A stretch of 64,000 nucleotides of DNA, from positions 1,997,241 through 2,061,240 of the forward strand of contig PSQN01000005.1 in the NCBI GenBank assembly GCA_002989075.1, written 5' to 3'. Of this stretch, positions 1,661 to 37,827 are shown piece by piece. The notes under the pieces are model-generated. The model did no database searches, had not been told where the DNA came from, and saw only the letters and a list, made by a program, of their open reading frames with translations. Positions within the stretch are counted from its first letter, which is position 1, and each line of letters opens with the position of its first letter. The position numbers and the translations under genes were made by a program. Source of the DNA: Arthonia radiata (taxonomy: Eukaryota; Ascomycota; Arthoniomycetes; Arthoniales; Arthoniaceae).

Positions 1661-1853
1661 GGCGACGTAACTCCGGGCGACGAGCAGTAAAGCGGGGCCG
1701 GATCAAAGTGTCAAACATTGACACATTTGATCCCCAAGTCTGACTTGAAATTTAGTAGGTGAGATACCGATTCTCCAAAAGCTCTGCTCCTGCTCTTCAC
1801 ATTGGAATTGTGAAGTGTTCCATTCGTCGGCAGGCACTTAGCACCTTGCATTT
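1661..1853. other. 3' flank of the MSC7-like gene up to the insertion site
   Basis: No gene is seen. The stretch holds the imperfect hairpin at 1701-1732 and ends in CATTT (1849-1853), the left copy of the host target duplication that borders the transposon nest. Confidence 0.6.
1701..1732. repeat. Imperfect inverted repeat (hairpin) 40 bp after the MSC7 stop
   Basis: GATCAAAGTGTCAA (1701-1714), a 3-nt loop ACA, then TTGACACATTTGATC (1718-1732). The arms pair fully except for one extra A in the right arm. It may form a stem in the 3' untranslated region of the transcript; no function is known. Confidence 0.7.
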
Positions 1854-2038
1854 TGTTGTGTGCAGGATCGCCCAGTCCAGATGGCCATGCCAAGACACGG
1901 GATGCCTGGTAGAGAATTGCCTGAATAGGCATATATTGGGATCACGTGATGGACGCACTTATATTTTCCGTCTCATCCTCATGTACCTACCTTCCTACCA
2001 TATTAGTCGGAATGTAATAAAAGCTATATACCTTATAA
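1854..2038 (+). repeat. 5' LTR of the Copia element
   Basis: 185 bp beginning TGTTGTG. It matches 37638-37822 along its whole length and is much less AT-rich than the interior. TSD CATTT lies immediately upstream. Confidence 0.93.
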
Positions 2039-2099
2039 GATTATAAGCTCGGCAGCTTCAACGCAGCAAGGAGTTATTACTATTAACTTCTGATTAAAT

Positions 2100-3830
2100 T
2101 CTAACCACCAGCGGCGTCGCTATCGTCGTCGATCCGAAGTTGCCCTCTACCGCTCAGGGGGTAATATTATTACTATCGAAAGTAAGGCCGAACGGTAAGA
2201 TATCAAGATTTAAACGTTATTCTAATATTACTAGCGTACCTCTTTACCTCCGAAGTACAATCTTCTTAAAGATTAGATCTTTAAATCTACCTTATCGACG
2301 TCGTTTAAACTCGCCTTTAGGCAGTAAAAGCGACGCTCGAGTATTATTTGTGCTAAAGGCCTTATAAGTTAAATTAATAGATAGCAGAATTAAGCACTAT
2401 TGTAGGCATTTACCCGCTTTAAATTAAACTAAACTGTATTTACTTTTATCTTCGTTAAACGTAATTTTCGCTATAAACACTAACAATTTATTCTCTTCTT
2501 ACTACCCCGATAGAGCTTTCTAGTAGCGTATAAGGGGCCTAAAAGTCTTCTAAAGATACCGCATTAAAGTTAACAATGCCCTTAGCGCCGCAGGCCTTAA
2601 GACCTTTGTCTTATATAAGGCTCTTAAGCTAGTATAAGAGGAAGAAAAGAGATATTATAAAGAGAAGACCTAATATCAGCTATAAGATTAACTAAACAGT
2701 AAAGTAAAGTAGATACTCCTACGGCATCTGTCTACGGATATAGCTGTTATTATAGGTGGTTACCTTACTACCTAAAATATATAGAATTATACCTACGAGC
2801 AATATTAAATATTACCCTTGTCTAGAATATTTAAGCTTGTCGACTATCTCCCTAATATTACTCTTAATAACTTAAAAAGTTTAAAAGACTATATCTATCG
2901 ATTTCTAAAGTATAGAGAGGAACTCTGTATCCTAGAAAACAACAATTAAATATACCTAAAATTCTATAACAGTGTCTTATTTCTACGGGGCCTAAAGACA
3001 GAGACAAGACTAACTACGGTAATAAGAGACTTACGCTTTTTAGACCTAGTTTTAGTTATTTACGTCGTTATTAATCGAATTCGTACTAAATACTAGTACA
3101 AGAACATCCCGATAACGAAGAATAAGAGACTAGGGCTATCTATAGCTAAATCTTACGACAATCTTACTGCTACTAACGACCTACCAGCCGCTTTGGCCGC
3201 TAAGGGCGGATTAAGCAGAAAGAATTTTAACAGATATTCTAACCGATATAATTTACATTCTAATTTAATATATAAGAATTTAGAATACTACAAACAGTAT
3301 TCTAACCTTCTTACTAAGAATTAGAAGAATAAGGTAGATAAGAGTAAGTTCTCTGATATAGCAGGCGTTGCTATATCTATACCGTTGACGATAACGTCTA
3401 GTAGACTGTTTACACGGTCTAGTAAATCTTTCTTCTCCGGTATCTAAATATACAATATTAGAGCCACTATTTATATTTATACGGATATTAACGCCTTTAT
3501 AGCTATTAAGAAGCTTAAAGAACTAAAGTAGATTAAGGTTGCGGATAGTTTTACTTTTGCCACCCAATTTAGTAATATAATTCTAAACGTTAAACTTACC
3601 GACGGTAGTAAGGGCGTACTGCGTCTACTAGACGTTTTGTACGTACCGTTAGGGTTAATTAATATTATTTCTGCTCACAAATTAAAGAAAGAATATAGAA
3701 TATATCTTAACTATTAAAACGACCGCCTTATAGTTAAAACTAAAGTATACGCTAAACTTACTATTATCGATAACCTTTTATTTATTATTTCTACTAACGT
3801 CGAGACAGTAAGGTAGTTCGCTACTGTAGC
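2100..3830 (+). pseudogene. Copia gag and protease remnant
   Basis: Decayed coding region just inside the 5' LTR. The clearest piece is at about 3450-3700, where an aspartic-protease-like start is followed by LDVLYVPLG and then an NIISA-like segment, the spacing seen between protease and GAG-pre-integrase in Copia polyproteins. The gag part is recognised by position only. Many breaks; fossil. Confidence 0.7.
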
Positions 3831-3922
3831 ACTAGTAGTACCGGCGACGCTGCTATTACTAGAGCTTATTTACAAACAACTAAGCTATTCAGAAATATTT
3901 ATCTTAAAAAAGATAATAAAGG

Positions 3923-4393
3923 TGTTACAAGCACCAGCCCCAGACGGCCTAGCGCACGTCCAAGCATCAACCACCGCCAGTTACCTCAGTCCTACAAGCA
4001 TAATTCCCGACTAAGCCTATAAACCAGCTGTAGGCATTATCGAACAAGACGGCTATAAAGGCCTATATTCCCTATAAACCCGATATAGGTATTGTCGAGT
4101 TAACGGACATAGAGGAACTTCCCTATGTACCTTAGACTATATAGCTAGACTAATGGCCGACCTTAGGATAGACTTTAGTCTATTAACTTAATATTTAAAT
4201 ATAAGTTTCTTAACTATATTTAGGTAACGTGCTTTACCTTCTATCTACTTTAGTTAAGCCCCTCTTACCTTCTATAATCTGTCTCGCCTCTCCTACCTTT
4301 TAGTCTCTAGCACACAAGATACCTACTACTAAGGTTAATAAGTATATAAGGTAAGTAAGCCTTAGTTCGGTTTTTCTAGCGATCGGCGTTATA
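3923..4393 (+). repeat. 5' LTR of Gypsy A
   Basis: 471 bp beginning TGTTACAAG. The first about 100 bp keep many CpA dinucleotides that appear as TpA in the 3' copy, so RIP hit the two ends of A unequally. Confidence 0.92.
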
Positions 4394-4435
4394 CTTTAAT
4401 AGACTCGCTACAAAAGTAGAGAAAGTAGATTAGTT

Positions 4436-5350
4436 ATGTCTACTACTTCGGTATCTAATAGCCGCAACGCTACGAACAGGTTGGCCAATAGAATAACCAG
4501 CACGAGTAAGATATCGAACGTTAACACTAAGATAGAAAAAAGCTTCTTAAATAAATATTTTAAAGTTACTTTATTCTTAATACGCCTAGCTATATACTTT
4601 AAAACTTACAAAGATTAGTTTCTAAACGATACTACTATAGTTCTATTCGCTACCTCTTATATAGATAGAGATGCCTATAAGTAGGTTAAGTACTACTTCA
4701 ACGATTTTTTATTTACCCCGATAAAGAGTAGACGCAAGGATACCGACGAGTTCTTTGCTAGCTTTACCTTCTTTTAGAAGAAGCTTCGCAAAATCTTTAA
4801 ATAGACCGACGCTAGATGCATCGCTATTAAGAAGCTTAGAAACCTTAAGCAAATAGAACCAGCAAGCAGGTACGCCGCCGAATTTATATAGTATACTAAT
4901 TAAACAGAATAGAACAAAAAACCTCTTATCGAGACCTTTTATAAAGGACTTAAGAACTATATTAAGAAAATAATCTATATTTGTAGAGAGAAGTTTAACG
5001 ACCTCGATAGCTTTATACAGCGAGCAAAGGAGATTAACGATAGTAACTTTAAAAGATAAATAAAAAAGAAAGGTAACCCTACTAATAGATTCTATAAAAC
5101 AAAGAATTAAGTAAACTTACAATAAGACCGAGGCAATCTAATAGAGTTAAATTTTATAAAGCCTCGAAGAAAACTAAACAACTAAGAAAGAGAATATAGA
5201 ATAAAGAATAAGCTATACTTATATTATAGAAAACCAGAGCATTAAGTTAAAGAATACCGTTTCAAGAAACAATAGTTTAACAGTACCGGCAGAAACAAGC
5301 GTAATAATTAATCTTAGAAATCCTGTTTTCTACAACAATATTTTAATATA
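4436..5350 (+). pseudogene. Gag remnant of Gypsy A
   Basis: Starts 42 bp after the LTR with an ATG opening a Ser/Thr/Asn-rich segment (MSTTSVSNSRNATNRLANRI). It runs towards a degraded CCHC zinc-knuckle near 5215-5270, the usual C-terminus of Gypsy gag. The first 60 codons are open (4436-4618); the rest is broken many times. Confidence 0.7.
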
Positions 5351-6389
5351 ACTACCTAGACATAGGAGGACAGTCGCTAAGTTACTTCCAATTAAGAGTA
5401 TAACAAACTAAACTTATTTGACCTATATAAGAACCGGAATACAGACATCGAGTTATAGAAAGAGACAAAGGAACGACAAATAAAAAAGAAACAATAAAAT
5501 TTATAGGACTGAAATAACATTAACCGCACTATTCTAAGGCAGTAAGTATAAAATATCGTTATACTACACGAAACACTATTCTAGACTACGTACTACAATA
5601 ACGATTGTACGATCTATAAATTTAACAAACTAGGATTAGGATAGTAGTCAAAGAAACCGATATCTCTAAAACAAGGTTCGACACAAGAACTAGGCCTTAC
5701 CCGAAAACAACCTAAGTTACCTTGCTTAGAGACCTAAGGGGAATTTAAGGAAGAATAGACCGTAGAAGCTAAGTAAGATAGCAGCTACGATGCGTTATAG
5801 GTAAGATAACGACTTAAAGATAAAAATATAGATTCTAATAGTACAGAATCCTCTCTTAAGGACAATACTAACTAAAAAGAGCAAACTCTAATCCGTTAGG
5901 AAGAAATAATATAGAGACTTTGTTAGTTAGCCTTTTACGAGAGGAAGTTAAGCACTAATAAAGAAATTAACAATATTCTAAGATATATTTACTTACGCTT
6001 ACGACAACTAGTAAACTATCTTATTAGAGGTCTAGAATTACGTAGTTAGTACTAATATCTTTAATTAACAATATACAATCTATAAATATAATAAGTTTTA
6101 ATTAGCGATAGTTATATAATTAAAGTAGAGATTGTAAATAATAAACTAAACGTTATAATAAAAGCAGTACTAAAACATTCTATATAGGAATTCTTATAGC
6201 AGATTAACCGACAGTAGATTCTAGTACCTAAAATACTTTAGAACGTATACAATTAACAGAAAAAAGACTAAGCCGACTGCTTCGAGGGCAGTAGTACCGG
6301 CCTATTTAACGGTTAGATCCTTTAAGAGTTTAGCTCTATACAAGCTTAGCTGTTTACAAAACATATTTACATACTTAAGTAACAATAAA

Positions 6390-8345
6390 CTACAGAAACA
6401 TTAAAATTATAATTAATTTAGGCGCAACAGGCAACTTTATCTTAATACGCTACGTTAAGGAGTACTAGATATAAACACAAAAGAAGAAATTACTCTACGC
6501 ACTATTTAGATTCTAAGAGACAGAGAAAAGAGTTAACTACAAGACTTTGCTAATAGATATAACTATTAAGGACTATTAAGAAGAAATTACTTATAATATT
6601 GTAGATATTAACTAGTATCACGCTATACTAGGTATACCCTAGTTACAACAATATAACCTAAAAGTAGATTAGAGAACTAAGAAACTCCTCTTTACTAAGT
6701 ATAAGTACTTTAGATAAGAGTCGTTCTACGGAATAGATACTCTATAAGCTATTTTTAGTAGTAAAGATAAGAAGCGCAATAAAGAACTTATGTAAGTTAG
6801 CACTACTATACTTTAATATTCAGATATTCTATAAAAGGAGTTTAACGCAGTATCTTGTCTATAGCTAGCTACACGCAAGTATAAATAAGAAACGACTATA
6901 CGCCAACAATTCTATACAACAACAAGTACTTAGTTAATTACTAAGATACTAGAGAAATATAATTAATTCTAATACCTATTTAAGGAAGCTAAGCTAAACT
7001 CAGCTCTCTTAGAATACAAATCGTAGAATTATACAATACCTTTATAAGAAGGTAAAACGCTAATATTTAGTCTAATATACTCTCTATTAGAAGTAGAAAA
7101 TTAAGCGCTCTGCGACTATTTTAATAAAAATCTTAAAAAGGAATTTATCTAAAAATTAATATTACTAGCCGGATACCTAATACTCTTTGTACCAAAGAAG
7201 AATAATAAACTACGACTCTATATAAATTATAGACAATTAAATAGAGTAACTATTAAAAACCGATATTCTCTACTACATATCGACGAAATAATAGATCAAT
7301 TGTATAACGTACAATAGTTTACTAAGTTTAACCTATAAGGAGCTTACAACCTAATTTATATAAGAAAAGGCGAAGAATAGAAAACAGCCTTCTATACTAG
7401 ATACAGACTTTTTAAGTATTATGTTATACCCTTTAGGCTAATAAACGCACTAGCATTATTTTAGAAACTAATTAACAATACACTCAGTAATTACTTAAAT
7501 ATATTTATAACTACTTATCTAGACGATATCTTAGTATATAGCTGTATACTAGAAGAACATAAGAAATATATTAAGAAGGTATTAAAAAGATTAGCGCGTA
7601 TTAATTTACAAATTAATATCAAGAAAACCTAGTTCTACTAACAATCCGTTAAATTTCTTAGATTTATAATTACTAAGTACAGTCTCTAAATAGAAGATTT
7701 AAAGATTCAATCTGTTTTAATTTAGCTTACACTAAAGAATATAAAACAATTACAAAAGTTTCTTAGTTTTGTTAACTACTATAGGCAATAGATATCTAAC
7801 TTTAGTTAAATTACAGTACTACTATCTTAACAGACAAAACAATCGATAGAATTCTTCTAGACGTAAAAAGAACAATTAGTATTTAAAGAGCTTAAGAAAG
7901 CTTTTAAGATTAGACCTATACTAGCAATATTCGACCCTAATCTACCGATTATTATAAAAATAGACGCGTTAGACTATACAATTAGAGTATATATAAGTTA
8001 AAACAACAAGGAAAGAAAGCTTAAACCAGTAGCTTTCTACTTAAGAAAAATATTATCTATAGAACAGAACTATAATATTTACAATAAAGAGCTTTTAGCT
8101 ATTATAGTAGCATTTAAAATATAGCGAGCTTACCTAGAAGGAGCAAAATATATAATTATAATATATATAGACTATAAAAACCTAACTTATTTTATAATAA
8201 TAAAGAAACTTAACTGCAAATAAGTTAGATAGTTAGAGACTATAGCTCTATACAACTTTATTATTACTTACAAGAAGGGTTCTAAGAACGATAGAGCCGA
8301 CGCTCTAAGCCGACGTCTAGATTACCTTAATAATAAGGAACACGT
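6390..8345 (+). pseudogene. Protease, reverse transcriptase and RNase H remnant of Gypsy A
   Basis: A protease-like motif (GATGNF, about 6420-6440) is followed by reverse transcriptase landmarks KTAFYTRY (about 7381), PFRLINA (about 7430) and YLDDILVY (7513-7536), then RNase H ending in SKNDRADALSRRLDYL (about 8281-8328). The region stops shortly before the insertion point of B. Broken many times. Confidence 0.8.
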
Positions 8346-8567
8346 TAAACACACAATATTTCGAAAATATAACAACAAGATTAAATACAATTAATTAGCT
8401 ATAACAACTAAGTTTGTTATCGAACTAAACAGCCGAATCCTAAACATTCTAAACGACTCTAAGACCTACTAGGAAAACGAGAAACGATACCTAGAACTAG
8501 TTAAGAACAATAAGGGCTATTATAAATTTTAGAGCAAGATCTATGTCCCAAGGAATCTAATTTAACG

Positions 8568-9017
8568 TGTAACGCCGGTCGCTAGGAGAACTAAACTAAG
8601 GCTTACTTGCCTTATATACTTATCGACCTTAGTAGTAGGTATCTTGTGTGCTAGAGACTAAAAGATAGGAGAGGCGAAACAGATTATAGAGGATAAGAGA
8701 GGCTTAACTAAAGTAAATAGAAGGTAAAGCACGTTACCTAAATATAGTTAAGAAACTTGTATTCAGATATTAAGTTAATAGACTAAAGTCTATTCTAAGG
8801 TCGATTATTAGTTTAACTATATAGTCTAAGGTATATAGGTATGTTTCTCTATATTTAACGGTCCCGACAATCTCTTTGTTGCGTGATTGGGATCCTATTG
8901 CGATGTAGCGACGTTGCCGATATCGCTGTATCGAAGTTATCGGGTATACTGTATAATACTCTAATAAGGCTAGCTGCGCTTAGCCTTATACTAGCTTAAT
9001 GTAGTAAGATCGTAACA
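8568..9017 (-). repeat. 3' LTR of Gypsy B (left copy)
   Basis: 450 bp; begins TGTAACGCC on the plus strand, the reverse complement of the LTR end GGCGTTACA seen in A. It matches 15215-15664. Confidence 0.9.
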
Positions 9018-9837
9018 TAAGGTCTTCTCTTTAAGGCTAGTCGTTCTTAACGGCCCTAGAGACATTAAAACCTCGTTGTTATTCTATAGTAGATCTAGTT
9101 CTATAAGTTGTTATATTTAAAGTTAAAAAGGCTCCTAACGCTAATAAAGCGCTCGAGATTAATACCGTTCTTACTGAAGTCTGTAGTCGAAAGATGCTTC
9201 CGTATTCCTGTTGCTCTTATCTAGGTAAGAAGTATGTCCTAAAGTCTGGGAAGGCCTCCTATTTTGTGTGTACTCGCGATAAGAAGTTGTATAACGTTCG
9301 TCTATTGTTAGAGAATAGTTAGTTTCTATCTTACGTTTATTTTTTGTGTTAGTTTAACTTATTTTTAGCTTAGAGTATCCGTTCTTAGTACTTATAGGTA
9401 TTGAATGCCCTTTAGGGGTAACGTAAGCGTTTAGCGAAAGAGAAGGAAGTCGTTTGTACGGCGAAAAGATAGCGCGAAGCTATTAAAGCGGTAGTAGTAG
9501 ATTTAGAGAAAGAGCTTAAAAGATTGTACGTTTAGGCGTAGAACAAAATAAATTAGAATAATATATTGTTTGAGAAAGAATAGCTGGCGGCTATATCTAG
9601 TAGTAATATTATAGATATACTAAGTAGCCTAAGTATAAATTTTTATAACAATCTATTTCTAGAGTTAGGTAGTAGGCTACTAATATAGTAGGCTAGTTTG
9701 TTTATAGATAACCTAGGCGCCAGCGAGGCGCACTAGATAGTAGATTAGAGTATTAGTGCTGCTACAATTAACTAATACTTTAGTTTTAATATCGTTGAAT
9801 AGTATCTTTATAGTTAGTTAGGTTTTATTTTAGTTTC

Positions 9838-12800
9838 TATTAATTTTTATGTTTAGAATATCCTTTCTATTTTATAAGATACTATCGTTTGCCTTAATAT
9901 TATCTATAAGCTCGAACCGTTTTAACCTTATACTCGGGTTCTTAATTATTAGGAAGGATTTCTAGGTTAGATCGTTCTACCTCTTAAAAGTAGACTAGCT
10001 CTAATAGCGCTATATAGAATATAGAATGTATTTTTATTGTTTTTAAGAGTTTAAGTTTAAATGTTACGGGTCTTAATTGCTATAAGATTTTAAACGGTCT
10101 TGTCTTAGTATAGTTAAGTTTCTTACTTAGTTTAATAGTTTTTATGTTTCTTATAAGCAAGTAAGCTCTTTCCCCCTCTTTTATACTTATATTTAGGGTA
10201 ATTCTTAACTTGTTATACTATTTTCTTATTTGTTCGTTAATAAACTTGCTGTTAGCTTTTAACTACTAGTACAGGGTCTTTATATTCGTTGCTATTCGCG
10301 TAGCAGTATCGTTCTCTATATTGTTTTATAGTTGTCTACCTTAAAGAGGGTAATAGCCGTATAAGGCATAGAATAGTATTGTTTTGGTTGTATTGTTTTT
10401 AATATTGTTGTATGCTGCTTACGCTACTAGTAGTAATTGTACCCAGTCGTTCTGCTAGTAGTTAATATATACCCAGAGATACTGTTTTAGTGTTTAATTT
10501 GTTTGTTCTGTCTATCTGTCTGTCTATAGATAGAATAACGTTAATATTTTTTGTTTTGTCTCTACCTGTTGTATTAGAGATATTTAAAATCGTAAGACAA
10601 ATTTTCTGTCTCTGTCTAAGATAATCCTTTGCGGTTAACTATAGTTTGCTAAGATAATCTAAAGGAATATATATATTAATTGTTCTAAATTGCTAGCTTC
10701 TTTGTAAGGTACAAAGTACGCGTATTTTGTTAGTTTATTGTATATAACTAGGATAGCGTCGTATACTACTTTTATAAGTAGATCCTTAGATATTAGTAAC
10801 TTAGTAATAAAGTCTAGTAAGACTATATACTATAGTCTCTCGGGTATTTCTAGTAGTTGTAGTTTACTATATAATAAATGCCTTGCGTGCTTAGTTCTTG
10901 CGTATATATTATATTCTTAGATATAATTCTTAACGTAGTATTAGATTCTCGGGATGTAGTAGGTTCGTATAATCTTTTTAATAGTGTTGTTGATGCTCTT
11001 GTATTCCTTTATTAAGTTATTGTAGAAGTTACTAATAATGTATTGAATTAGATTCCTTAAAACGTAGATTTTGCCTTAAGATTTATAATAGCCCTTATCG
11101 TTTTTAGTTAGTACTAGGTATCGTTTCTCGTTTTCCTAGTAGGTTTTAGAATCGTTTAGAATGTCTAGGATTCAGCTGTTCGGTTCGATAACAAACTTAA
11201 TTGTTATAGCTAATTAATTGTATCTAATCTTGTTATTGTATTCTTAAAATATTGCGTGTTCGACGTATTCCTTGTTATTAAGGTAATCTAGTCGTTAGCT
11301 TAGAGCGTCGGCTCTATTGTTCTTAGAACCCTTCTTGTAAGTAATAATAAAGTTGTATAAAGCTATAGTCTCTAACTATTTAACTTATCTGCGGTTAAGT
11401 TTCTTTGTTGTTGTAAAATAAGTTAGATTCTTATAGTCTATATATACTATAATTGTATAGTTTGCTTCTTTTAGATAAGCTCGCTATATTTCGAATGCTG
11501 CTATAATAGCTAAAAGCTCTTTATTGTAAATATCGTAGTTCTATTCTATAGGTAACATTTTTCTTGAGTAGAAAGCTACTAGTCTAAGCTTTTCTTCCTT
11601 ATTATTTTAACTTATATATACTTTAATTATATAGTCTAACGCGTCTATTTCTATAATAATTAGTAAGTTAGGGTCAAATATTGCTAATATAGGTTCGATC
11701 TTAAAAGCTTTCTTAAGCTCTTTAAATACTAATTGTTCTTTCTATATCTAGAAAAATTCTATCAATTGTTTTATCTATTAAGACAGCGGTACTATAATTC
11801 GACTAAACTTAAATATCTATCGCCTATAGTAGTTAGCAAAACTAAGAAACTATTGTAATTATTTTATATTCTTTAGTATAGGCTAGGTTAGAACAGATTA
11901 GATCTTTAAATCTTCTATTTAAAGACTGTACTCAATAATTATAAATCTAAGAAATTCGACGGATTGTTAATAGAACTAGGTTTTCTCGATATTAATTTGT
12001 AAATTGATACGCGCTAATCTTTCTAATACCTTCTTAATATATTTTTTATATTCTTCTAGTATACGGCTATATACTAGGATATCGTTTAGATAAGTAGTTA
12101 TAAATATGTCTAAATAATTACTAAGTGTATTGTTAATTAGTTTCTAAAATAATGCTGGTACGTTTATTAGCCTAAAGGGTATAACGTAATACTCAAAAAG
12201 TCTGTATTTAGTGTAAAAGGCTATTTTCTATTCTTCGCCTTTCTTTATACAGATTAAGTTATAGACCCCTTATAGATTAAACTTAGTAAACTATTACGCG
12301 TTATACAATTAGTCTATTATTTTGTTAATATATAGTAAAGGGTATCGGTTTTTAATAGTTACCCTATTTAATTGTCTATAATCTACGTAAAGTCGTAGTT
12401 TACTATTCTTCTTTAGTACAAAGAGTATCGGGTATCCGGCTAGTAATATTAATTTCTAAATAAATTCTTTGTTAAGATTCTTATTAAGATAGTCGTAGAG
12501 TGCTTAATTTTCTACTTCTAATAGAGAGTATATTAGACCGAATATTGGTGTTTTGCCTTCTTATAAAGGTATTGTATAATCTTACAATTTATATTCTAGA
12601 AGAGCTAAGTTCGACTTAGCTTCCTTAAATAGATATCGAAACTAATTGTATTTCTCTAGTATCTTAGTAATTAACTGAGTACTTGTCGTTGTATAGAATC
12701 GTTAGCGTACAGTTGTCTTTTGTTTATATCTACGTATAGTTAGCTACAGACAAGATACTACGTTAGACTTTTCTCGTAGAATATTTAAATATTGAAGTAT

Positions 12801-15180: not shown

Positions 15181-15214
15181 TACTTTCTCTACTTTTATAG
15201 CGAGTCTATTAAAG

Positions 15215-15664
15215 TATAACGCCGATTACTAGGAGAACCAAACTAAGGCTTACTTGCCTTATATACTTATTAACCTTAATAGTAGATATCTTATATGCTA
15301 GATACTAAAAGATAGGAGAGGTAAGATAGATTATAGAGAGTAAGAGGGGCTTAACTAAAGTAGATAGAAGGTAAAGTACGTTATTTAAATATAGTTAAGG
15401 AACTTATATTTAGATATTAAGTTAACAGACTAAAGTTTATTCTAAGGTTAGTTATTAGTCTAGCTAGATAGTCTAAGGTACATAGATATGTTTCTCTATG
15501 TCCGACGGTCCCGACAATCTCTTTGTCGCGTGGTCGGGATCCTATTGCGATATAGCGACGTTGCCGACGTCGCTATATCGAAGTTGTCGGGTATACTGTA
15601 TAATGCTTCAATAAGGCTGGCTGCGCTTAGCCTTGTACTAGCTTAATGTAGTAAGATCGTAATA
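15215..15664 (-). repeat. 5' LTR of Gypsy B (right copy)
   Basis: 450 bp, the same length as 8568-9017 and aligned along it. The right edge is followed by CAACG (15665-15669), the target duplication. Confidence 0.9.
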
Positions 15665-15669
15665 CAACG

Positions 15670-18173: not shown

Positions 18174-18297
18174 AAAGGAGTATAATAAGTTAAAAAGCTT
18201 ACTAAATATCTTCTAGTACAAGATATACTATATATTAAAATCCTAAAGAGTATAATTTAGTATCGCACAACGATCTAAACGGCCTATACAGCGCCTC

Positions 18298-20608: not shown

Positions 20609-20613
20609 CCTTC

Positions 20614-22900: not shown

Positions 22901-22949
22901 AGCTCTATTGTGTTATTTACTTTTAACTACCTCTGCTACTTAGTTTAAT

Positions 22950-25900: not shown

Positions 25901-28300
25901 TTAAGAATATAGATACAGTAATAGGCATCGCAAAGATTAAGCTTTATAAATATCTTCGAGCCTTGCAGGCGATTAAGAATCTTAGAGACTAGCGGCAATA
26001 TATAGCGATTCTTTACAGTTATATTGTTTAAACCGCGGTAGTTAACATACAGTCTTAACGATCCGTCTACCTTAAATACAAATAGAACTAGAGCACCCGC
26101 TAGACTAATAAAGGATTGTATCTACCCTTTCTTAATTATAGTATCTAGGTACTTCTAGAGCGTCTTTAGCTTATTCTACGATATAGGGTAGATTAGCTTA
26201 TATGGAGGTTCTATGCTATCCTTAAGCTTAATCTTATAAGTATACTTATTAAGCGGCGCAAGCTTACTCGACAGTTCTTTAGAAAAGATATCTTTATATT
26301 TAGCGTACTAAGGAGAAAGCTTATCTCGCTTCTCTACTTTCTTAGACTCGCTATTTAAAGTTCGGTCTAGCGGCGAACTAACGTCTAATAAAACCGCTAT
26401 TTAATACTTATAACGTTTATCCGCTTTTATCTATAGAATCGTAGAGTAGCACTGTTTGCCTCTTTATAAATATACTAAAATTACGTCTTTATTGACGATC
26501 TCAACAGATTTAGCTTCTGTTACCCATTCTTTAGGCGCAGAGAGGTTTCTTTAAGCAATTATTCTTATCGCCTAGCTAATTTAGGGCTTAACTTACTTAA
26601 GCTATAGATATCCTAAGACGAGGCTATATTCTATAAAGTTAGCTAAATATAGGTAGAGTTAGTAATACTGTTTCTCTCTATATACGTCTCTTACAGTTAT
26701 ATTTACGTTATAAGTACTATAGAGCTACAGCTTATTTTTATTAAGGAACTTAGTATACGGGAGCTTTACTCTATACAATTTTTACTATTCTCTTTTAAGC
26801 ACAATACGATAATTAATAAGGTTAATCTTTATACTAAAATCTACTAGCACAAGAATCTCTTGCGGCGACCTACCTAGCTGTACCGAGACTTTAATTTATT
26901 CTCGCCGTTAATCGATAGTCTTAAGCTTTAGAAACGTAAGACTTATCCTTAAGGCCTATTATTTCTTTACCTAACTAGCGTTAAATTAACACCGGTTTAG
27001 GGCGTAGTACATTTAGTAGCATAATACCCTTTCTAATTGTATATAAAGTAGATAATATTTGTCTTACTGTATATCGACCCTAGTTGCCTCTATGCGGTAG
27101 AGCCATTGTCTCTTTATTGGACTAGTAAGTTGCCTTATCCTTAATATAAACCGCTTTATCCGCGGTCCGATCTCTATAGAGATGCTCTAGCGTTATAACC
27201 GCTACAGTTTGTATCCAATCCGCTACCGAAGCGATCTCGGTTTATATTAATATTACAGACGTTCTACGATATACTACGATTAATATTTATATATTAACAA
27301 ACTTTCTTTAGAAGCTTGTTTATATCTTTAAGCAGGTTCTTTAAGAGACCTTACTTAATTAGCTTTATCTTAATTTATAAAGATAAGCGTATATAGTAGA
27401 ATACAGCCTAATTTAGGTTTAGTATCTTACTACCTAGCAACTTAGTTTCTTTGTTTTGTAGAAAGCTTAGAAAGTTCTTAAGCTTCTACGTCGAACTCTA
27501 CGTTAACGTAAAGAACTTTTCTACGTTAGCTGTAGTAGCCGTAGCTAGGTCGACGATATATTCTATTATCTATTCTTTAAAGTACGCTTATACGTAAAGC
27601 GATGTCTTCTCTTTATTCTTTTCGACGTAAGTTCGCTATTTATCCGCTAAGTCTCTAGAAAGTCTCTAAACGTACTAAATAATAATACGAACGTTATTAA
27701 AGTCTAATATATTGGCTATCTAAAATCTTTTCTTAATAGTTTAAGTCTATCGAGTATCTATAGAGTTTATAGCTCTCTTAAGCTTAGGCGCTTCTTTCTT
27801 AAAAAGCTCGTTAATTTAGCTTTAAAGGCTTAAATCGCTCTATAGCCGCTTACTACTAGCCTCCGAATTGCAGGTAGACTGAAGCTTAACTTCAAGTATT
27901 CGCTTTTTAAGCTTAAGCTTCTTAATAGTGTACTGCTACTACTATACTAGTAGTTCTTATCTTAGCTTTCGTACCTTAACGCTTAAGAAGGCGCTAAAGA
28001 GGGATTCTTTGCGGTTAAAGCCTTAGTAAGCCCCTTCGTTGTCATTATTGTTTTAGTTTAGACTATCGTTCTTCTTAGTTTACAATCTACTCGGCGTCTG
28101 TTTGCCGGCTTATAAGCCCTCTTACTTATTGTTGTCGCTAAATTCTATATAAGAGTCCTAGTCTTCTTTAATATTAACTATATTTTGCTACGCTCTATAT
28201 TCTACTTGTACGGCGGATATAAAGCGACTACCGTTGCATACTTAGTTTCTTACTCGTTCTCTTTAAATACGATACTTACTAGCACCGGCCATTAATTAAT
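22950..28300 (-). pseudogene. gag-pol remnant of Gypsy D
   Basis: Mirror image of C: gag at about 28.3-27.0 kb, protease near 26.85 kb, reverse transcriptase about 26.3-25.5 kb, RNase H about 25.5-24.8 kb, integrase about 24.5-23.3 kb. Interrupted many times. Confidence 0.75.
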
Positions 28301-28431
28301 TTTAATATTATTTATTTTAACGTATATACGGAGTCTCGGCTATACTCGATTATACTAGATTAACCCCTAAGCGACGTCAATAAGGTACCTAACTGCCGGC
28401 CGCCTCTCTTGTAGGTTTAAAATAATTAGAA

Positions 28432-28627
28432 TATAATCTAGATATAGGGCAGAGAGCAGTTAGGTAGCAAAAAGGGTCTAAATAGGCTCTACTAGTATTC
28501 AAGCTAATTATTAAGGAGACTAGAAAGAGATACATTTACTAGAGAAAAGATATCCTCCTAGAATTGCAGCCTTCCTAAATAGACAACATTCCGTTCTAAT
28601 TCGCTATTGGGACGTTTATGCATTATA
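28432..28627 (-). repeat. 5' LTR of Gypsy D (right copy)
   Basis: 196 bp, followed by CCTTC (28628-28632). It aligns end to end with 20614-20809. Confidence 0.91.
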
Positions 28628-28632
28628 CCTTC

Positions 28633-31600
28633 TTAGTATACTAAATATAAAGATATCTTTTTTAAAGAAATATCGAGTAAGCTTACGCCGCTTAGTAAGC
28701 ATACTTATAAGATTAAGCTTAAGGATAGTATAAAACCTCTATATAAGCTAATCTACTCTATATCGTAGAATAAGCTAAAAACGCTCTAAAAGTATCTAAA
28801 TGCTATAATTAAGAAAGAATAGATATAACCCTCTATTAGTTCGGCGGGTACTCTAGTTCTATTTATATTTAAGGTAGACAAATCGTTAAGACTATATATT
28901 AACTACCGCAGTTTAAATAATATAACTATAAAGAATCGCTACGCATTACTACTAGTCTCTAAGATTCTTAATCGTCTATAAGGCTCGAAAGTATTTACGA
29001 AGCTTAATCTTTACGATACCTATTACTATATTTATATTTATAAAGGAGATAAGTAGAAGACAGCGTTTTATATTCAATATAGACACTATAAATACTTAGT
29101 AATGCCTTTTAGACTAATAAACGCTTCTACTACGTTTTAGGTATATATCTATAAAGCTATAAGTAATCTTATTATACTATATATATTGTTTATATAGACA
29201 ATATCTTAATTTTCTCTAAAGACAAGGAAAGCTATAAAGGCTATATTAAAGAAGTTCTATAAAGGCTTTATAAATAGAGTTTATTTGTAAAGCTGTTTAA
29301 ATATTAATTTTATACTACTAAGGTTTCTTTTCTAGAGTTTACCGTAAAAGTTAATAATATCAAAATAGATCTAAAAAGAGTATAAACTATAGCCGAATAG
29401 CTAGTTTCTACTACTGTAAAGCAGATTCTGTTCTTTTTAGAATTTATAAACTTTTACCGGCAATTTATTTATAAATTTAGCTGTATCGTAGTACCAATAA
29501 ATATACTAACAAAAGACATTAAGTTTATTTAGAGTAAAGCTTAATAAAAAGCTTTTAAAGCGCTAAAGCAAGCCTTTATAAATATACTAGTACTAACGTA
29601 CTTTAACCCGGTACTATCGATTATTTTAATAACTAACGTATTAAACTTTATAATAGTAGATATCTTACTTTAGCTAAGAGAAGATAGTCGATTGCTATTA
29701 CCGTTAAACATTAACTTAGACTTATCTACACTAAATATAGCAAATACTGTCTAGACTAGTATTAATAATAAGGTAGATATATATTTGCATTCGATAGCGT
29801 TTTTTTTAAAAAAATTTATAGACGCTAAGCTAAGATATAATATCTATAATAAAGAGCTTATAGCAATATAAATTAGCTTTAAGTACTAGCGCTATTATCT
29901 TATTAGTATATAGCACTTTATAAAAATTATAATAGACTACAATGATCTACAGTATTTTATAACAATAAAAGTATTATCTTGCTAATAGGCGTGCTAAGCA
30001 GAAGACTTATTAGTATTTAACTTTAAAATACTATATCGTACGAATAGCAAGAACCTAGTAGACGCGCTATTATACCGTTTAAATTATAAGAATTTATATA
30101 AAGTAAAGAAAGATAACGCTAATAAGATATTACTAAGTCTATAGTAGAAGCTTAGAAGAGATACTACTTTGTCTAGTACTAGAAAAGAGCTCTTTAGTCT
30201 AAAAGAAGGTATAATTACTGCTTTAATTATATTACTTAAAAATTAGTTTAAATACTATTAGTGGTTTAGCTACCGATCTAAAACTCTAAACGCAACTATA
30301 ATCTAAATTAAAGGTAGATTAAAGTTAAATACAGACCTTATATAGAACGCCTAGGAGTAAGAAACGCGTTTATCTTTTCTTACTAATACAGAGCCTTTTT
30401 TGGTAGCTTTAGTATTACGAGTTAAGATAGTTGCAGCTACCGCTCTCAAAACAGCTTATAATAATACTCCTTAGGGTTTTATAATCTTAATTCTTAAAGC
30501 TTAGTAGAGAGACGTCTTTATAAAGCAGAAAGTATTAGAGTTAAAATTATTAGCTAAGACTAAAAATTAGTAGAGTAATAAAATAGCAACAGATCGCCGT
30601 TAAGCTAATATAAAAAAGCGCTATATAAGTTAAATTAACTTAGATACTTTAACAGAGTCTAACTCAAACTCTAAGTCTCTAAAGTATATAAAATAGTTAA
30701 TTAATAGCTATAAGTTATTGTACTAAAATAATAAAATTTAGATATTAGAATACTCTACGTTAAAGCTTAAAATTATAAGCAGAAATTATAATAATAAGCT
30801 TACTAGCTACTTTAAGATTAAAAAGACTCTTAAAATTTTAAAATATAAATATACGTAGGAAAAGATAGTAACGTATATTAAAAACTTTATTGCTAAATAC
30901 AATATATACTAACAAACAGCCGTAAAGAGGTATAAATTATATAGCAAAATAGCAGCAATATTAGTTTTAATTAGCTTTTTTAAGGATCTATTTTTAAACT
31001 TTGTTATTAAACTACCGATAGTTTTTTTAAAGAACAGAAATATTGCTAATTTAATTCTTATAGTTGTAAACCGCTTTTTTAAGTTTATAACCTATATTCT
31101 AGTTAGTAAAACTATAAATGCTATAGAGCTAATAAAAGTACTTTATAAATACTAAGCAAAAACATTAGGATTCCTAAAAAGCCTTTTATCTGATAAAGAA
31201 TCTATATTTACTAGCTTATATTAGAGCACCTTCTGCTAGTATTTAGCTGTAAAACAAAGGTTGAGTACAGTATTTTACCCTTAAACTAATAGCTAAACCG
31301 AGCGCTAGAACTAGAAGCTTAAAAACTATCTATATATCTATATCTCTTAGAATTAAGATAATTAGTATAAGTATCTAAAAGAAGCTACTTTTATGTACAA
31401 TTTAAAAGTTTATTTATTAACAAAAATTTTGCTAATTAAATGTACGTTCGGTCGCGTTACAGACGTACTAGACGGCGCGCCGCCGCTAAATTGGTACTAA
31501 ACCTTTCTATTAGCGAGGATATCTTCCGTTAAGGGGGGAGATAGTCTAAACCAGAACATTCTATAGCAGTTAAGTATATAAAAGAACGCCTTCTCTGCTA

Positions 31601-32100
31601 ACAAGAAATAAAGCAGCAGCTAGAGAAAGCTTAGCGTTTATAGATAAAATAGTATAATACTAAGTATATACTAAAATACTATATAGTAGGTAACTTAGTG
31701 CTGCTATCGTTAAAGAATCTTAAAATAAAGAGGCTAATAAAGAAGCTCGATAATCGAAGCTTAAAACTATTTAGAATTCTTAAGAAAGTAGATAAACAAG
31801 CTTACTAGTTAGCACTACTAGACTCTTATTACATTTACTCTGTCTTTTATATATTCTTACTAGAGCTATATCGCCGTCGGCTTGGTACGGAACCGCCTGG
31901 TCTAGTCAAAGTCGATAGTAGTAAAGAATAGCTCGTTAAGGCGATTTACTTTAAGATTAAAAATAAAGACTAGTATTAAACTAAGTAGTAGAGATAGTTA
32001 AAGATAAATAATACGATAGAGCTGCAGGCATATCTTAAAGACTCTAACGCTCTTAAAAAATTTAAGAAGCGTAAAGACGCTAAGCCGAGAGGTAAGTATC
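28633..32100 (+). pseudogene. Reverse transcriptase, RNase H and integrase remnant of Gypsy C
   Basis: Continuation of C after D. Landmarks are a YINYRSLNN-like segment about 28.9 kb, KTAFYIQYRHYKYLVMPF about 29.05-29.11 kb, YIDNILIFSKD near 29187-29230, an integrase core with IVVNRFFKFITYI about 31.06-31.1 kb, and a segment ending NALKKFKKRKD near 32.05-32.08 kb that resembles the end of a chromodomain. Broken throughout. Confidence 0.78.
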
Positions 32101-34053
32101 TAAGATAAACTAAACAACGTAGATAAGAGAGAGCTATAAGCCTACGTAATTAGTCTACGATATAACGCCGAAGAGAAGGTAGATTACCTTAAGTATAGTT
32201 TAGAACATAGAATTGCTAAAATAAGACTTGTATAGAGAGAAAATATAGAACTATTCTAATAGGCTAAGGAAAACTACTTATATAAACTAAAACTCTAGCC
32301 GAACAAAAGGTAGAAAACTACAAGAAGACTACCTAAACTGGCGTCGAAGTTAGTACAGATCGGCGGTATAATACTACTTAACCTAGCTACGACTATTATT
32401 GACGGGGTCTTAAATTTAATTAACTAGACTTACTAAAGCTAGCTCGTAAGGGGCCTTATTTATAGACAGCTAAGAGCCGTATAACTCTATATTAGAATTA
32501 AAGCTCTAACGTAGCGCCTTAATACGCTTAAAATCGTTAGTATTGGCCTACTTAGCTAACTTAGTACTTAGACCGCGCTGCTAGGCCTATAGCTAAACGT
32601 AAAAGGCGCGAAGTAGAGTAAGATAATCGTTATAAAAAGACTCTTTGTTATTTTAGACGTCCTTGTTAAAAGTTAAGAAGAAGTTAGTACGTATAAGAAG
32701 GTTATAGATATATCTTTATTAAGCAGAAACCTAGTATACGTTAATATAGAGTCAATTAGTATCTAAAACGGAAAAGTATTAGACTTACTATCTTATACTT
32801 GTCTTCTAACCTTCTAATATTAGTACAGCGAGTATACTTAGCGTACTATTTTTTAGGCTACTTATAGGTTTAGTTCTTATAATGCTTAAAATTAAAGTTT
32901 ATAGAAGAACTACTATATATAGCTATATCGCTAAATAAGGCCTTTATGCAACAATAGTATACTAAGATATAAGCCTCTAGCTAAAGCTAAATTAATGTAG
33001 ATATAGCGCGAAAAGCAGGATTTAAGGAGGTAGACTAGCGAGACTTTATAGGCGACTTAGACTTATAAGCAGTACCGCGGTAATAGAAAGAACAGATAAT
33101 TCTATTATTATTAGAGTTATCTTTATAAACGTAATACTTTTAATAAGCTAGAATACTAATAGTTAAACTAAAATAAAGCAATAAGAGATAGTAAACTTAT
33201 AAAGAGTCGTAAAAGTTAGAGATACGCTATTTAGTTTAGAAGAGCGTAGACTAAAAAAAGCTGTAGATAATTTAGAAATTAGTAAAGTAACTTTAAGAGC
33301 TTTCTTCTTATAAGTGTTATAAAAAAGAGCTTTAAGATTAATAACGGCTTTAAAGTTCTTAATACTATAAGTTAAGCAGTAAATTAGTGCTTTAAGAGAG
33401 CTTGCTTTAGCAGTAGATTTATTAACAGAGTTAAAATTCGATATAGTAAAGATTGTAAAGGTAAATTAAAGGCAATTTAATATTAAATTAGCTACAAACT
33501 TATTACTCAAGAAAAAAAGTAAAGGTCTATTAAAGAAAAGAAGCTTATAGACTAAGTAGAAGAGTATAATAATATTAAAGAAAAAAAGAGAAAGTTTAAA
33601 AGAGCAAGAGCCTTGTTTTATGCCTATCGTTAGATACCGATAATAAAGCTTTCGCCTATAGATACTAATATAGAAGCAAAGAAGTCTATTTACGTAGGTT
33701 ACTACTACTTATAGAGGCAATTAATTAGTAAAAGCGTATATAAGAGTATATAAAAGAACGTAAAATTAAGTAAAAATAATATATAACCTTACTACTAAGC
33801 TTATAACTTAGGCCCGAGAGCTTTAAATTAAAAGTAAAGCTTAGCACTATAACTTAGTACTATAGAAAATTAGTACTAAACGACGTATAGAATAATAGTA
33901 AGCAACATTACTCTTTTTCTAACTGAACGCAGACATAAGCTAGTAAGTTTTTAATAAGATTATTGCCTTACGTAAGACAATAAATAGAAGGTACGATAAA
34001 GATAGTAGATTGTATCTAGATCGAGGGCGGTTCTCTTTAAGAGGGAAGGTAGT
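32100..34053 (+). other. Unassigned 3' region of Gypsy C
   Basis: Nearly 2 kb downstream of integrase, ending in a purine tract (AAGAGGGAAGGTAG) just before the LTR at 34054. It is homologous in reverse to 20.81-22.9 kb. No domain is recognised and RIP has erased most coding signal. Confidence 0.5.
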
Positions 34054-34762
34054 TATAATGTATAAACGTTCCGATAGCAAATTAGAACAGAATGTTATCT
34101 ATTTAAAAAGGCTATAATTCTAAAAGAATATCTTTCCTCTAGTAGACACATTCCTTTCTAGTCTCCTTAATAATTAGCTTAAATACTAGTAGAGCCTATT
34201 TAGGTCCTTTTTACCACCTAACTGCTTCCTGCCCTACACCCAGATTTGTTAAAAAAGGTGCAGGGAAGAAGAAGAATACTATTACAAAGAGTAGAAAGAC
34301 GAGACTAGCTTGGGACTGGTGCAATACTTAGGCTTGTTACAGGTACAATACTTAGTAACAAAGAGAAGCTGTTGTTGTATTGTCTGTCTTGTTAGCTAGA
34401 ATCCTCTAGAGGAATCCTAGCTTATATATCTAAGTTTAGCGGCCCGTATAGAACTTAATAGATATCTGTTCTTTTGATAGAGGCCAGATAACCCGTAACT
34501 TACCGTATAAGACAGTAATTCCGTCTATCTAAAACTATTAGTCTCTAAGTCCATTTTGTGTTGTCTTAGACTATAGGCCAGCTGTTTAGGACGGGTCGTA
34601 CAATGCTCCTTTTTAACCTAGGCTCGGGCTACTAGGCCCGACCCTTTAGGTAAAAGGCTTGTTCTATTTTAAACCGAGACAGCTGGTAGGACCTGTCCGA
34701 TACTCCGGGCCCCTAGAGGTTCCGGCTAACCAGCTAGTTGGTTAATTTCCAATAAGATTACA
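34054..34762 (+). repeat. 3' LTR of Gypsy C, interrupted by a solo LTR
   Basis: 709 bp that becomes exactly 196 bp when E (508 bp) and one 5-bp duplication are removed. It ends ATTACA and is followed by GCCTC. Confidence 0.9.
34247..34754. mobile_element. Solo LTR E (508 bp)
   Basis: Begins TGTTAAAA and ends CCAATA. It is flanked by the duplication AGATT (34242-34246 and 34755-34759) copied from the last bases of C's LTR. It has no internal region, so it is most simply a solo LTR left by recombination between the two LTRs of a lost element. It is clearly richer in G+C than its surroundings, with blocks such as CCGGGCCCC, so it has largely escaped RIP. Family unknown; no second copy is present in the window. 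Confidence 0.8.
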
Positions 34763-34767
34763 GCCTC

Positions 34768-37490
34768 TATACAGACACTATTAGCTAAGTTACGTTTACT
34801 AACAACAACAACGTTCTCTAGGGAGCTAGCAAGTATACTATTATTGTTACAGACAATTGTACCCGCTACAGGTAGTCGATAACATTCTTATCGAAAGACT
34901 GTATCGCGAAAGGTATAATTTATCTATTTACTTATCTCTATAATCGCTACCCAGACTACTATATTGCGGAGTTCTATATTAACGGTAGTACAGAGTCTAA
35001 TATTATTGTCTTTAAGGCCTTTAAGCTAGAAATACAGATAAGAATATCTATACTATATACGTTTAAGAAACACAGCTTAGCAAAATCGTTCAATAAGATT
35101 ATTCTTATTAAAGCTAGAAGTATAATAATTAAGAGTAGCGTTCTAGGTTGTCTTTAATCTAATGCGTTAGTATATACAACTTATATTTCGAACAGAATAC
35201 TATTTAGTAAGAAGGATAGATGTTTCCTACAGATTTTTAATAATTTTAAGGATAAAACTCTAAAGTCGCTTAATCTAAGCTATCTTCGTTAGTTTAGTTA
35301 TATAGCCTATCTATATTTATCTGTATAGATATATACAGTAAGCTAGAAGTTTGTATCTAGAGTAAAGAAGCTTATCTTCGTAAGATTCGTTGTCTAAACT
35401 ACTTACGTCTACTAAATTATTAATCTTATCGACTTTAAAGTCTATTAAAGTCTGTACGTTACTTTTAATAAGTCTTTAGTGTTTAAGAACTGCTTATAGT
35501 TGTTCTTTAATATTAATAATACCTTCTAAGTTACGCTAAATAACAATATTTTAGTTAATATTCTATATAGCTACCTTTAAAATAATTATATTATATCTTA
35601 TATTATCTTTAAAGAGCTATAAATAATTAAAATCGGTATTCTAGACTAAAACCGTTTATATATACTAACTCTAAAAGAAATCGAATAAAATAATTTTTTG
35701 TATAAAAATTCTTCTAACTACTATAACGACGACCCCCCCGAGGGCGGTAACCACTAAACTATCGATGGTAGCGTCAATAGTAATATCTCCGGGTATAAAA
35801 TCGATGCCGGAAAAGCTGCTCGTAAAGAAACTAAAGCTCTATCTTTAACGGTTCAGTCTCAGCGTCGTTTCAGCAGAAACACAATTCGTCGAAATTATAA
35901 TAATGTTAATAGAAATAGACTTTCTAGATCTACTTTATACGTCTTTTCTATAGCTACTATTAATAAGCTTTTACTTAATTTTACGTTATATAAAGAAGCT
36001 ATAAGACGGCTAAATACTCTTAAATAGGACTTTACGTCTAAAGTTAAGCTAAAATAGCTGTATAATACTAATACCGTTATACGTTACTCTATATTAAGCC
36101 TTCTAAAGGATATAAAGCCGATACTAAGTACGCTTATATTTAAGCTAAAACGCTATTTAAACGGAACGATCGACAAATATAAGGTACGTCTGATTGCCCG
36201 CGGCTTTAAACAAAGATACAGAATTAACTACTGGAATACTACGGCGTCGACCGTAAGTATACCCGCGGTACGTATTCTCCTTACTATCGCTGTATAGCTT
36301 AGATAAACCTTTCTATAGATCGACGTCGTTGGTATCTATCTTAACAGCGTATTAAACTATAAAAAACTGTTATATATATAGTTCTTAAAAGAACTTAAAG
36401 AAGAAGATATAGTCCTTTGTATCTAAAACTTACTATATAGCTTAAAGCAGTCTGCTATACTATAGTAAGACAACTTTAAAGAGACAATATAGAAATTAAG
36501 CTTTATTAGCCTCTTTTCTAAAGTCTGTCTGTACGTTAATAAGGACCGTACCTGCTTAATACTTATTTACGTCGATAATATTAAAATTACTATATCTAAT
36601 TCTAAAGCTATTTATTAGCTTAAAAGGGACCTTAAAAAGAAATATAAAATTAAGGAAATAGATTAAACGACTAGCTTATTCTTAAGGCTCGTTATTAAGA
36701 ATTTGCTACAAGGACTTACTGTAGCCCAGCCGCAATATATCAACAAGATACTGTATAATTTCGGTATAAAAGACTGTAATAAAACAAAGTTTCTCAGCAA
36801 CGTTTAGCTTAAAGCTCGTACTATTGGTACAGCGTCTTAAGCTAAGGTTGTTCTATATATATTAGCTACTAGATTATTATAATATTTTACTATTTAAACT
36901 CGACTAGATATATTAAATTAAACTAATATATGCGCTAGATTTAATTATAACTCTAGGCGTACGCACTAAGAGGCAGTTAAGCGATTATTTTAATATTTAA
37001 AGAGTACTTGCTAGCTAGACTTACTTTTTACTAAGTACGACTATCTTACTATCGACGCCTTTAGCGATACTAACTATACTAGCGACCTAGATAACCGTAA
37101 GTCAACAAGCGGCTCTATTATTAAGATTAGCGGTAGCCCTATTGTTTAGCGCAGTAAACTTTAGAAGAAGGCGGTTTTCTCTACTATTAAAGCAGAATAC
37201 TATACCTTATCTAAAATAACTAGAGATATTCTTTAGTTAAACAATATACTTAAGAAACTTTACCTTACTAAATTAGCTAATTTACTAATTACGATCTATA
37301 AAAATAGCAATAGCGTTATTAATTTAGCTACTAATTATACTAATTATAAGCGCTCTAAGTATATTAATCTAGCTAATTATATCTGTCGACAATTAGTCGA
37401 AAACCGCTCTATCTGCGTTTAAAAGATAGATACTGCAGATTAAGCTGTAAATAGTCTTACTAAGCCTTTGCTACTCCTAATATAGATAGG
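34768..37490 (+). pseudogene. Copia integrase, reverse transcriptase and RNase H remnant
   Basis: Integrase about 34.77-35.65 kb, then reverse transcriptase with KVRLIARGFKQR (36181-36216), a Y-V-D-N active-site motif near 36570-36585 and SLKQS near 36440. RNase H about 36.85-37.45 kb has DAFSDTNYTSDLDNRKSTSG (about 37050-37110) and a LVENRSICV-like end near 37390-37420. Dead, with tens of breaks, although RIP looks lighter towards the 3' end. Confidence 0.82.
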
Positions 37491-37637
37491 CTTTATTTAA
37501 CAATTAGAGCTCTACGCCTAGTTACACTACGTACGCTATTTCTTTTGTTACTTACTGCCTTCGGTAGGCCGTTCCTTTTATTCAAAACGATAACATTTGG
37601 CTTGTTATTTACCTATATTGGTGATCCTAAGGGGGTG

Positions 37638-37822
37638 TGTTGTGTGTAGGATCGCTCAGTCCAGATGGCTATGCCAAGACACGGGATGCCTGGTAGAGAA
37701 TTGCCTAAATAGGCATATATTGGGATCACGTGATGGACGCACTCATATTTTCCGTCTCATCCTCATGTACCTACCTTCCTACCATGTTAGTCGGAATGTG
37801 ATAAAAGCCATATACCTTATCA
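37638..37822 (+). repeat. 3' LTR of the Copia element
   Basis: 185 bp, TGTTGTG to TTATCA, followed by the host duplication CATTT (37823-37827). It carries a TATA-like GTGATAAAAGCCATATAC segment (about 37798-37815) upstream of the next host gene. Confidence 0.94.
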
Positions 37823-37827
37823 CATTT

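What the first reader, a model, noticed from the sequence alone, without database searches (positions are those of the whole stretch)
1849..37827. A 36-kb retrotransposon nest resolved to the base: five elements plus a solo LTR, all with target duplications
Every layer has matched LTR lengths and a 5-bp duplication: Copia 185/185 bp with CATTT; A 471/471 with AAAGG; B 450/450 with TAACG/CAACG; C 196/196 with GCCTC (after discounting E); D 196/196 with CCTTC; E with AGATT. Net lengths are sensible for each family (about 5.2, 7.15, 7.1, 7.9 and 8.0 kb). This fixes the order: Copia first, then A and C, then B in A, D in C and E in C's LTR. The whole block is one original insertion at one host site, not a gradually grown heterochromatin edge.
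Basis: seen in the sequence. Interest (0 to 1): 0.75.

Follow-up and report, generated by a model that had tools for sequence, protein, structure and literature searches.

The report
Nested dead retrotransposons in lichen fungus
A 36-kb block of dead jumping genes, stacked one inside another, sits between two ordinary genes of what looks like a lichen-forming fungus; such blocks are common, but in this one the oldest layer looks youngest, probably because the fungus's mutation defence fades at the edge of a repeat.

Summary
Each internal junction was also found uninterrupted elsewhere: both Copia junctions in 16 of 16 close Copia relatives in the same genome, B's target inside B, D's inside D, E's in C's other LTR. 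A/B and C/D are two Gypsy families; E is a solo LTR of a second Copia family. The uninterrupted host site could not be sought.

Such nests are ordinary in fungi with repeat-induced point mutation (RIP). The order is only partial. LTR identity cannot date it: 157 of 162 LTR differences are transitions, and the outermost, oldest Copia has the most similar LTRs (95.1%).

The more interesting result: RIP fades towards the outer edge of Copia copies, in opposite directions in 5' and 3' LTRs of the same sequence, and is nearly absent from gene-space LTRs without a body (8 of 698 sites). One family only. New member of a known kind.

The parts
1849..1853 (.). host target duplication CATTT, left copy (right copy 37823-37827)
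1854..2038 (+). outer Copia 5' LTR, 185 bp, little RIP
2039..3922 (+). outer Copia body, part 1, with A's target AAAGG at 3918-3922
2039..2052 (+). probable primer-binding site of the outer Copia (GATTATAAGCTCGG; GGTTATGAGCCCGG in less mutated copies)
   Evidence: match to initiator tRNA-Met recalled, not shown
3923..18173 (+). Gypsy element A with B inside; LTRs 3923-4393 and 17703-18173; target AAAGG, second copy 18174-18178
8568..15664 (-). Gypsy element B, same family as A, inverted; LTRs 8568-9017 and 15215-15664; target TAACG 8563-8567 and CAACG 15665-15669
16493..16795 (+). piece of A matching the Tf2-1-like SH3 domain (PF24626, E 6.2e-08)
18179..18297 (+). outer Copia body, part 2, with C's target GCCTC at 18293-18297
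18298..34762 (+). Gypsy element C with D and E inside; LTRs 18298-18493 and 34054-34246 plus 34760-34762; second GCCTC 34763-34767
20614..28627 (-). Gypsy element D, same family as C, inverted; LTRs 20614-20809 and 28432-28627; target CCTTC 20609-20613 and 28628-28632
34247..34754 (-). E, solo LTR of a second Copia family inside C's 3' LTR; target AGATT 34242-34246 and 34755-34759
34768..37637 (+). outer Copia body, part 3, reverse-transcriptase domain RVT_2 at 36085-36786
37638..37822 (+). outer Copia 3' LTR, 185 bp, little RIP
37823..37827 (.). host target duplication CATTT, right copy
392..1660 (+). left neighbour: open frame with aldehyde dehydrogenase domain (PF00171); the name MSC7 was not tested
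38220..39752 (+). right neighbour: open frame with HhH-GPD DNA glycosylase domain (PF00730)

Best explanation
A Copia retrotransposon inserted between two host genes of an ascomycete (probably an Arthoniomycete) with a 5-bp duplication. Two Gypsy elements of different families, A and C, later inserted into it 119 bp apart; B entered A and D entered C, each a member of the same family as its target and inverted; an element of a second Copia family inserted into C's 3' LTR and was reduced to the solo LTR E. RIP (C-to-T mutation of repeats, here most often CpA to TpA) disabled the layers. RIP weakens over the last few hundred bases of a repeat where it meets unique DNA, so the two outer Copia LTRs and the adjoining gene flanks stayed almost unmutated while the buried LTRs did not. 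Shown: structure, target duplications, junctions, transition bias, and the edge gradient in this Copia family. Inferred: integrase-made insertions, LTR-LTR recombination for E, RIP as the mutator, and the homology edge as the cause of the gradient.
For: Matched LTR pairs and target duplications. Uninterrupted junctions: both Copia junctions in 16 of 16 close relatives (12 printed); B's and D's targets read in B and D, E's in C's 5' LTR. Related protein pieces cross the B and D insertion points without loss. 157 of 162 LTR differences are transitions, 85 of them at CpA/TpG; internal pieces have composite RIP index 1.2 to 1.6, Copia LTRs and gene flanks -0.6 to -0.9. Edge gradient: 5' LTR thirds 0.15, 0.31, 0.63 (10 copies) against 3' LTR thirds 0.16, 0.05, 0.02 (6 copies); slope difference reached by 1 of 8008 label arrangements, by 2 of 18564 when two left-out copies are added. 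E-type LTRs: 14 of 20 fetched are directly flanked by identical 5-bp repeats, and two others are the two ends of one element with AGAAT on both outer sides.
Against: No empty host site could be sought. RIP context is not purely CpA: 72 of 157 transitions lie elsewhere, and in C and D fewer than half (19 of 50) are at CpA/TpG. The RIP methyltransferase gene was not looked for. The gradient rests on one family with related copies, and three elements supply both a 5' and a 3' LTR. One of six 3' LTRs (L065) shows no fall; L034 has a weak slope without a clearly RIPed flank; the plateau is higher at the 5' than at the 3' end.
Confidence: 0.85

Rival explanations
1. The clean ends come from gene conversion: the many unmutated LTRs elsewhere overwrite the LTRs of full copies.
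For: Un-RIPed donor LTRs exist: 22 gene-space LTRs without an adjoining body show 8 of 698 sites mutated.
Against: Conversion from a lone LTR has no reason to be graded in opposite directions in 5' and 3' LTRs, and the decline goes on into the body, where a lone LTR has no homology.
Confidence: 0.1
2. Selection: insertions whose RIP reached neighbouring genes were lost, so surviving copies have clean ends.
For: The nest begins 188 bp after one gene and ends about 0.4 kb before the next start codon.
Against: The decline spans several hundred bases inside the element, where mutation would not by itself harm a host gene.
Confidence: 0.12
3. The block is an assembly composite, with repeats wrongly joined.
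For: Stretches of N occur near E-type LTRs elsewhere in the assembly.
Against: No N in the window, and every layer has its own exact duplication and junction.
Confidence: 0.03

Closest known systems
RIP-inactivated LTR retrotransposons of Podospora, crapaud (PMC10787394; abstract and passages seen)
   Same: Full copies carry RIP while most solo or fragment LTRs do not; families share body and part of the LTR while the 5' half of the LTR differs, as A and B do here.
   Different: The passages I saw compare full with solo LTRs by GC content; I saw no position-by-position decline towards the element's edge.
RIP in Neurospora (PMC4858203 and PMC7296669; passages seen)
   Different: Here the mutation level falls well inside the repeat. 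One paper notes leakage into flanks; the window's flanks show none by composition index.
Fungal Copia elements, GalEa and FunCo1 clades (PMC5445492; passages and one section seen)
   Same: Short LTRs with TGT...CA ends, 5-bp target duplication, Copia reverse transcriptase.
   Different: The sequence after the 5' LTR is GGTTATGAGCCCGG in less mutated copies, neither the GalEa hairpin motif nor the FunCo1 primer site; length 5243 bp is just under the GalEa range given there (5428-7018).

Membership tests
Ty1/Copia superfamily (outer element) | Copia-type reverse transcriptase | tested here: met
   RVT_2 at 36085-36786, 102.6 bits with 10 stops; piece 36058-36294 E 2e-09
Ty1/Copia superfamily (outer element) | integrase before reverse transcriptase | not tested
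   no integrase search was run on the element
Ty1/Copia superfamily (outer element) | matched LTRs and 5-bp target duplication | tested here: met
   185/185 bp, CATTT
Fungal GalEa Copia | conserved hairpin site CTGATCAGT or like after the 5' LTR | tested here: not met
   motif; sequences after the LTR in 13 copies
Half-tRNA primed Copia | primer site complementary to the anticodon arm of the host initiator tRNA-Met | tested here: inconclusive
   likeness recalled from yeast tRNA; a tight pattern found 0 matches in the genome
Ty3/Gypsy superfamily (A/B and C/D) | Gypsy-type reverse transcriptase | tested here: met
   protein pieces from RVT_1 loci L008/L009 match A and B (up to 77% identity), from L006/L007 match C and D (up to 62%); direct Pfam on one D piece only E 0.031
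Ty3/Gypsy superfamily (A/B) | integrase after reverse transcriptase | tested here: inconclusive
   a Tf2-1-like SH3 domain lies in the last part of A; the integrase core was not searched
Solo LTR (E) | lone LTR with target duplication; same sequence found as the LTR pair of a full element | tested here: met
   AGATT on both sides; L020 and L016 are the two ends of one C5 element with AGAAT outside and an RVT_2 match between them
RIP-mutated sequence | transition bias with CpA/TpG preference | tested here: met
   157 of 162 differences transitions, 85 of 157 at CpA/TpG; the preference is weak in C and D
RIP-mutated sequence | RID methyltransferase and sexual-cycle timing | not tested
   not searched; timing cannot be tested from sequence

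The most novel reading that the evidence does not exclude
In this fungus RIP is graded: its intensity falls from a plateau to near zero over the last 200-500 bp of a repeat that borders unique DNA. Short LTRs of elements beside genes therefore systematically escape, stay similar and can go on recombining to solo LTRs, while buried LTRs are destroyed. LTR identity then runs opposite to nesting age, and the depth of the gradient would measure how far inside homology the RIP machinery must be.
Probability: 0.55. Interest if true: 0.5.

Novelty: new member of a known kind. Interest (0 to 1): 0.3.

Why it matters
Nests like this are normally dated by LTR divergence. Here the order known from nesting contradicts that clock: the outermost element has 95.1% identical LTRs, the inner ones 84.2-89.8%. 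The likely reason, RIP fading at repeat edges, can be tested in any RIP-active genome and bears on how RIP measures homology. The host appears to be a lichen-forming Arthoniomycete (nearest named relative Coniocarpon cinnabarinum); that the group is lichen-forming is recalled.

Tried and rejected
Dating by LTR divergence: rejected; only 5 of 162 differences are transversions, 0-2 per pair. GalEa membership: rejected on the motif after the LTR. Host initiator tRNA: 0 matches with a tight pattern, left open. Pfam on 15 short open pieces of the nest: above cut-off only RVT_2 (Copia) and SH3_Tf2-1 (A); the rest gave none or weak sub-threshold matches. Published accounts of a RIP decline at repeat edges: the searches and passages of five papers showed me none; the library is partial and I read passages only, so this is no claim of absence. 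Papers on nested, RIPed LTR elements: (listings). Whether same-family, inverted nesting (B in A, D in C) exceeds chance: not computed; both families are abundant (779 and 256 candidate LTR matches, of which 40 each were scored).

Rows dropped: of 22 gene-space Copia LTRs without adjoining body, 16 with full 185-bp matches were counted (3 of 514 sites mutated) and all 22 (8 of 698). Of 12 different 5' LTRs with body, 10 were used; L045 (saturated, 34 of 34 sites mutated) and L079 were added; L070 is the window's own LTR again. The distant copies L047, L048 and L051 were not used for the gradient. That the 22 LTRs without body are true solo LTRs was not checked by target duplication.
Full report
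What was checked. The window has no N. A self-comparison shows direct LTR pairs for five elements and large inverted matches between A and B and between C and D, 82-87% identical, ungapped except for one C/D match with 10 gap openings. All ends were read to the base. B's two target copies differ by one C/T change at a CpA site, the kind of change RIP makes.

Independent proof of the junctions. The same genome holds other copies of the outer Copia (23 matches including the window's own). In 16 of 16 close relatives (L031-L046) the three Copia pieces of the window lie side by side with a single copy of each target, sometimes mutated (12 of the 16 shown letter by letter). Four distant relatives are contiguous too, the A junction one base short. 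B carries the uninterrupted version of A's target in its own body, D that of C's target, and C's 5' LTR that of E's target. Protein pieces from other loci cross the B and D insertion points without loss: L009 residues 1-187 match 8002-8562 and 186-258 match 15659-15877; L006 residues 1-234 match 19913-20614 and 232-295 match 28625-28816.

What the layers are. The outer element is Copia (RVT_2 at 36085-36786). A and B are one Gypsy family and C and D another, by protein pieces from loci found with the RVT_1 model. A and B share most of the LTR, but their first 155 and 133 bases show no significant likeness, the kind of variation described for crapaud in Podospora (PMC10787394, abstract and passages). 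E matches 40 scored places out of 518 candidates. Of 20 E-type loci fetched, the window's own included, 14 are directly flanked by identical 5-bp repeats. L020 and L016 are the two ends of one element on C5 with AGAAT on both outer sides, a purine-rich stretch before one LTR, GTTATAAGCCCGG after the other, and an RVT_2 match between them. L014 and L015 look like the two ends of another, with AGAAC outside, 12 kb apart. L013 has no matching repeat and L023 runs into N. On that evidence E is a solo LTR of a second Copia family, coding strand minus.

Host. A ubiquitin hydrolase at 53936-55726 is 80% identical to a Coniocarpon cinnabarinum protein and 68% to one of Chrysothrix; the other named proteins among the 120 listed are at about 63% or below. 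Coniocarpon belongs to Arthoniales, Arthoniomycetes. One protein is thin evidence for the class. The assembly has 33.5 Mb in 16 contigs and no relatives held.

RIP and the failed clock. Over 1498 paired LTR sites there are 162 differences, 157 of them transitions, of which 85 are at CpA/TpG; in C and D the share is lower, 19 of 50. LTR identity is 95.1% for Copia, 89.8% for A, 88.0% for B, 84.2% for C and 89.8% for D. Nesting says Copia is oldest, so identity ranks it wrongly. The internal pieces and E have composite RIP indices of 1.2 to 1.6 and A's LTRs 1.5 and 1.9; the two Copia LTRs and the host flanks lie between -0.6 and -0.9.

Why the outer LTRs look young. At sites where some copy keeps CpA or TpG, the fraction turned to TpA was counted by distance from the element's edge. 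At the 5' end (10 copies) it rises from 0.15 in the first 62 bp to 0.36 and 0.62 within the LTR, is 0.51-0.54 over the next 300 bp and 0.59-0.78 from 0.5 to 1.5 kb, with 0.50 in a last bin of 10 cells. At the 3' end (6 copies) it rises inward from 0.02 to 0.05 and 0.15 within the LTR, is 0.33-0.62 up to 0.8 kb, then scatters at 0.30-0.55. Both LTRs have the same sequence, so sequence cannot explain opposite slopes: on shared sites the 5' LTR thirds are 22/148, 30/97 and 46/73, the 3' LTR thirds 14/90, 3/60 and 1/44. LTRs in gene space without a body show 3 of 514 sites mutated in 16 and 8 of 698 in all 22. The difference in slope is reached by 1 of 8008 label arrangements, and by 2 of 18564 when the two left-out 5' LTRs are added. 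L045, which lies in AT-rich DNA, has a saturated LTR (34 of 34 sites).

Do flanks matter? The three 5' copies with a RIPed outer flank (L036, L044, L038; composite index 0.97, 1.28, 0.38 over 153-154 bp) have weak slopes (4.7, 21.1, 32.0), and those with index near or below zero mostly strong ones (51.8 to 73.0); but L034, index -0.05, has only 29.3. This fits RIP needing to be some distance inside homology, though the flank stretches are short and the test was not planned.

Limits. The gradient rests on one family, related copies and an ascertained set of sites; three elements give both a 5' and a 3' LTR, so the label test is not fully independent; L065 (3') shows no fall. The plateau differs between the two ends. 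RID was not looked for.

Verdict. The nest is real and as described; such nests are an expected product of LTR elements in a RIP-active genome. The order is partial, and 'one original insertion' is likely but lacks an empty-site test. The part worth carrying forward is the RIP edge gradient.

Noticed in passing
window 38220-39752: The gene beside the nest encodes an HhH-GPD DNA glycosylase with long charged ends; nearest solved sequences are endonuclease III and plant ROS1. Whether it bears on RIP is unknown.
   Followed up: partly
G000 C1, C5, C6, C9, C11, C15, C16: Seven pairs of E-type LTRs lie 4.80-4.85 kb apart in the same orientation. In the one pair fetched (L022/L023) the LTR with about 0.3 kb of flank is an 821-bp exact repeat on both sides of a stretch of N: perhaps unmerged contig ends, perhaps withheld sequence; the middle was not fetched.
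   Followed up: partly
L019, L022, L023, L024, L027, L028, L029: These E-type LTRs differ by only 0-3 transitions and 0-3 transversions from one another's reference (L022) yet have different target duplications (L022/L023 excepted), which suggests recent spread followed by loss of the bodies.
   Followed up: no
window 3923-4393 versus 15215-15664: A and B share the body and about the last 317 bp of the LTR, but the first 155 and 133 bp are unrelated, as if the LTR's promoter half had been exchanged.
   Followed up: partly
L055-L081, 22 loci: Many unmutated 185-bp Copia LTRs without an adjoining body lie in normal-GC DNA, which suggests frequent loss of bodies in gene space.
   Followed up: partly
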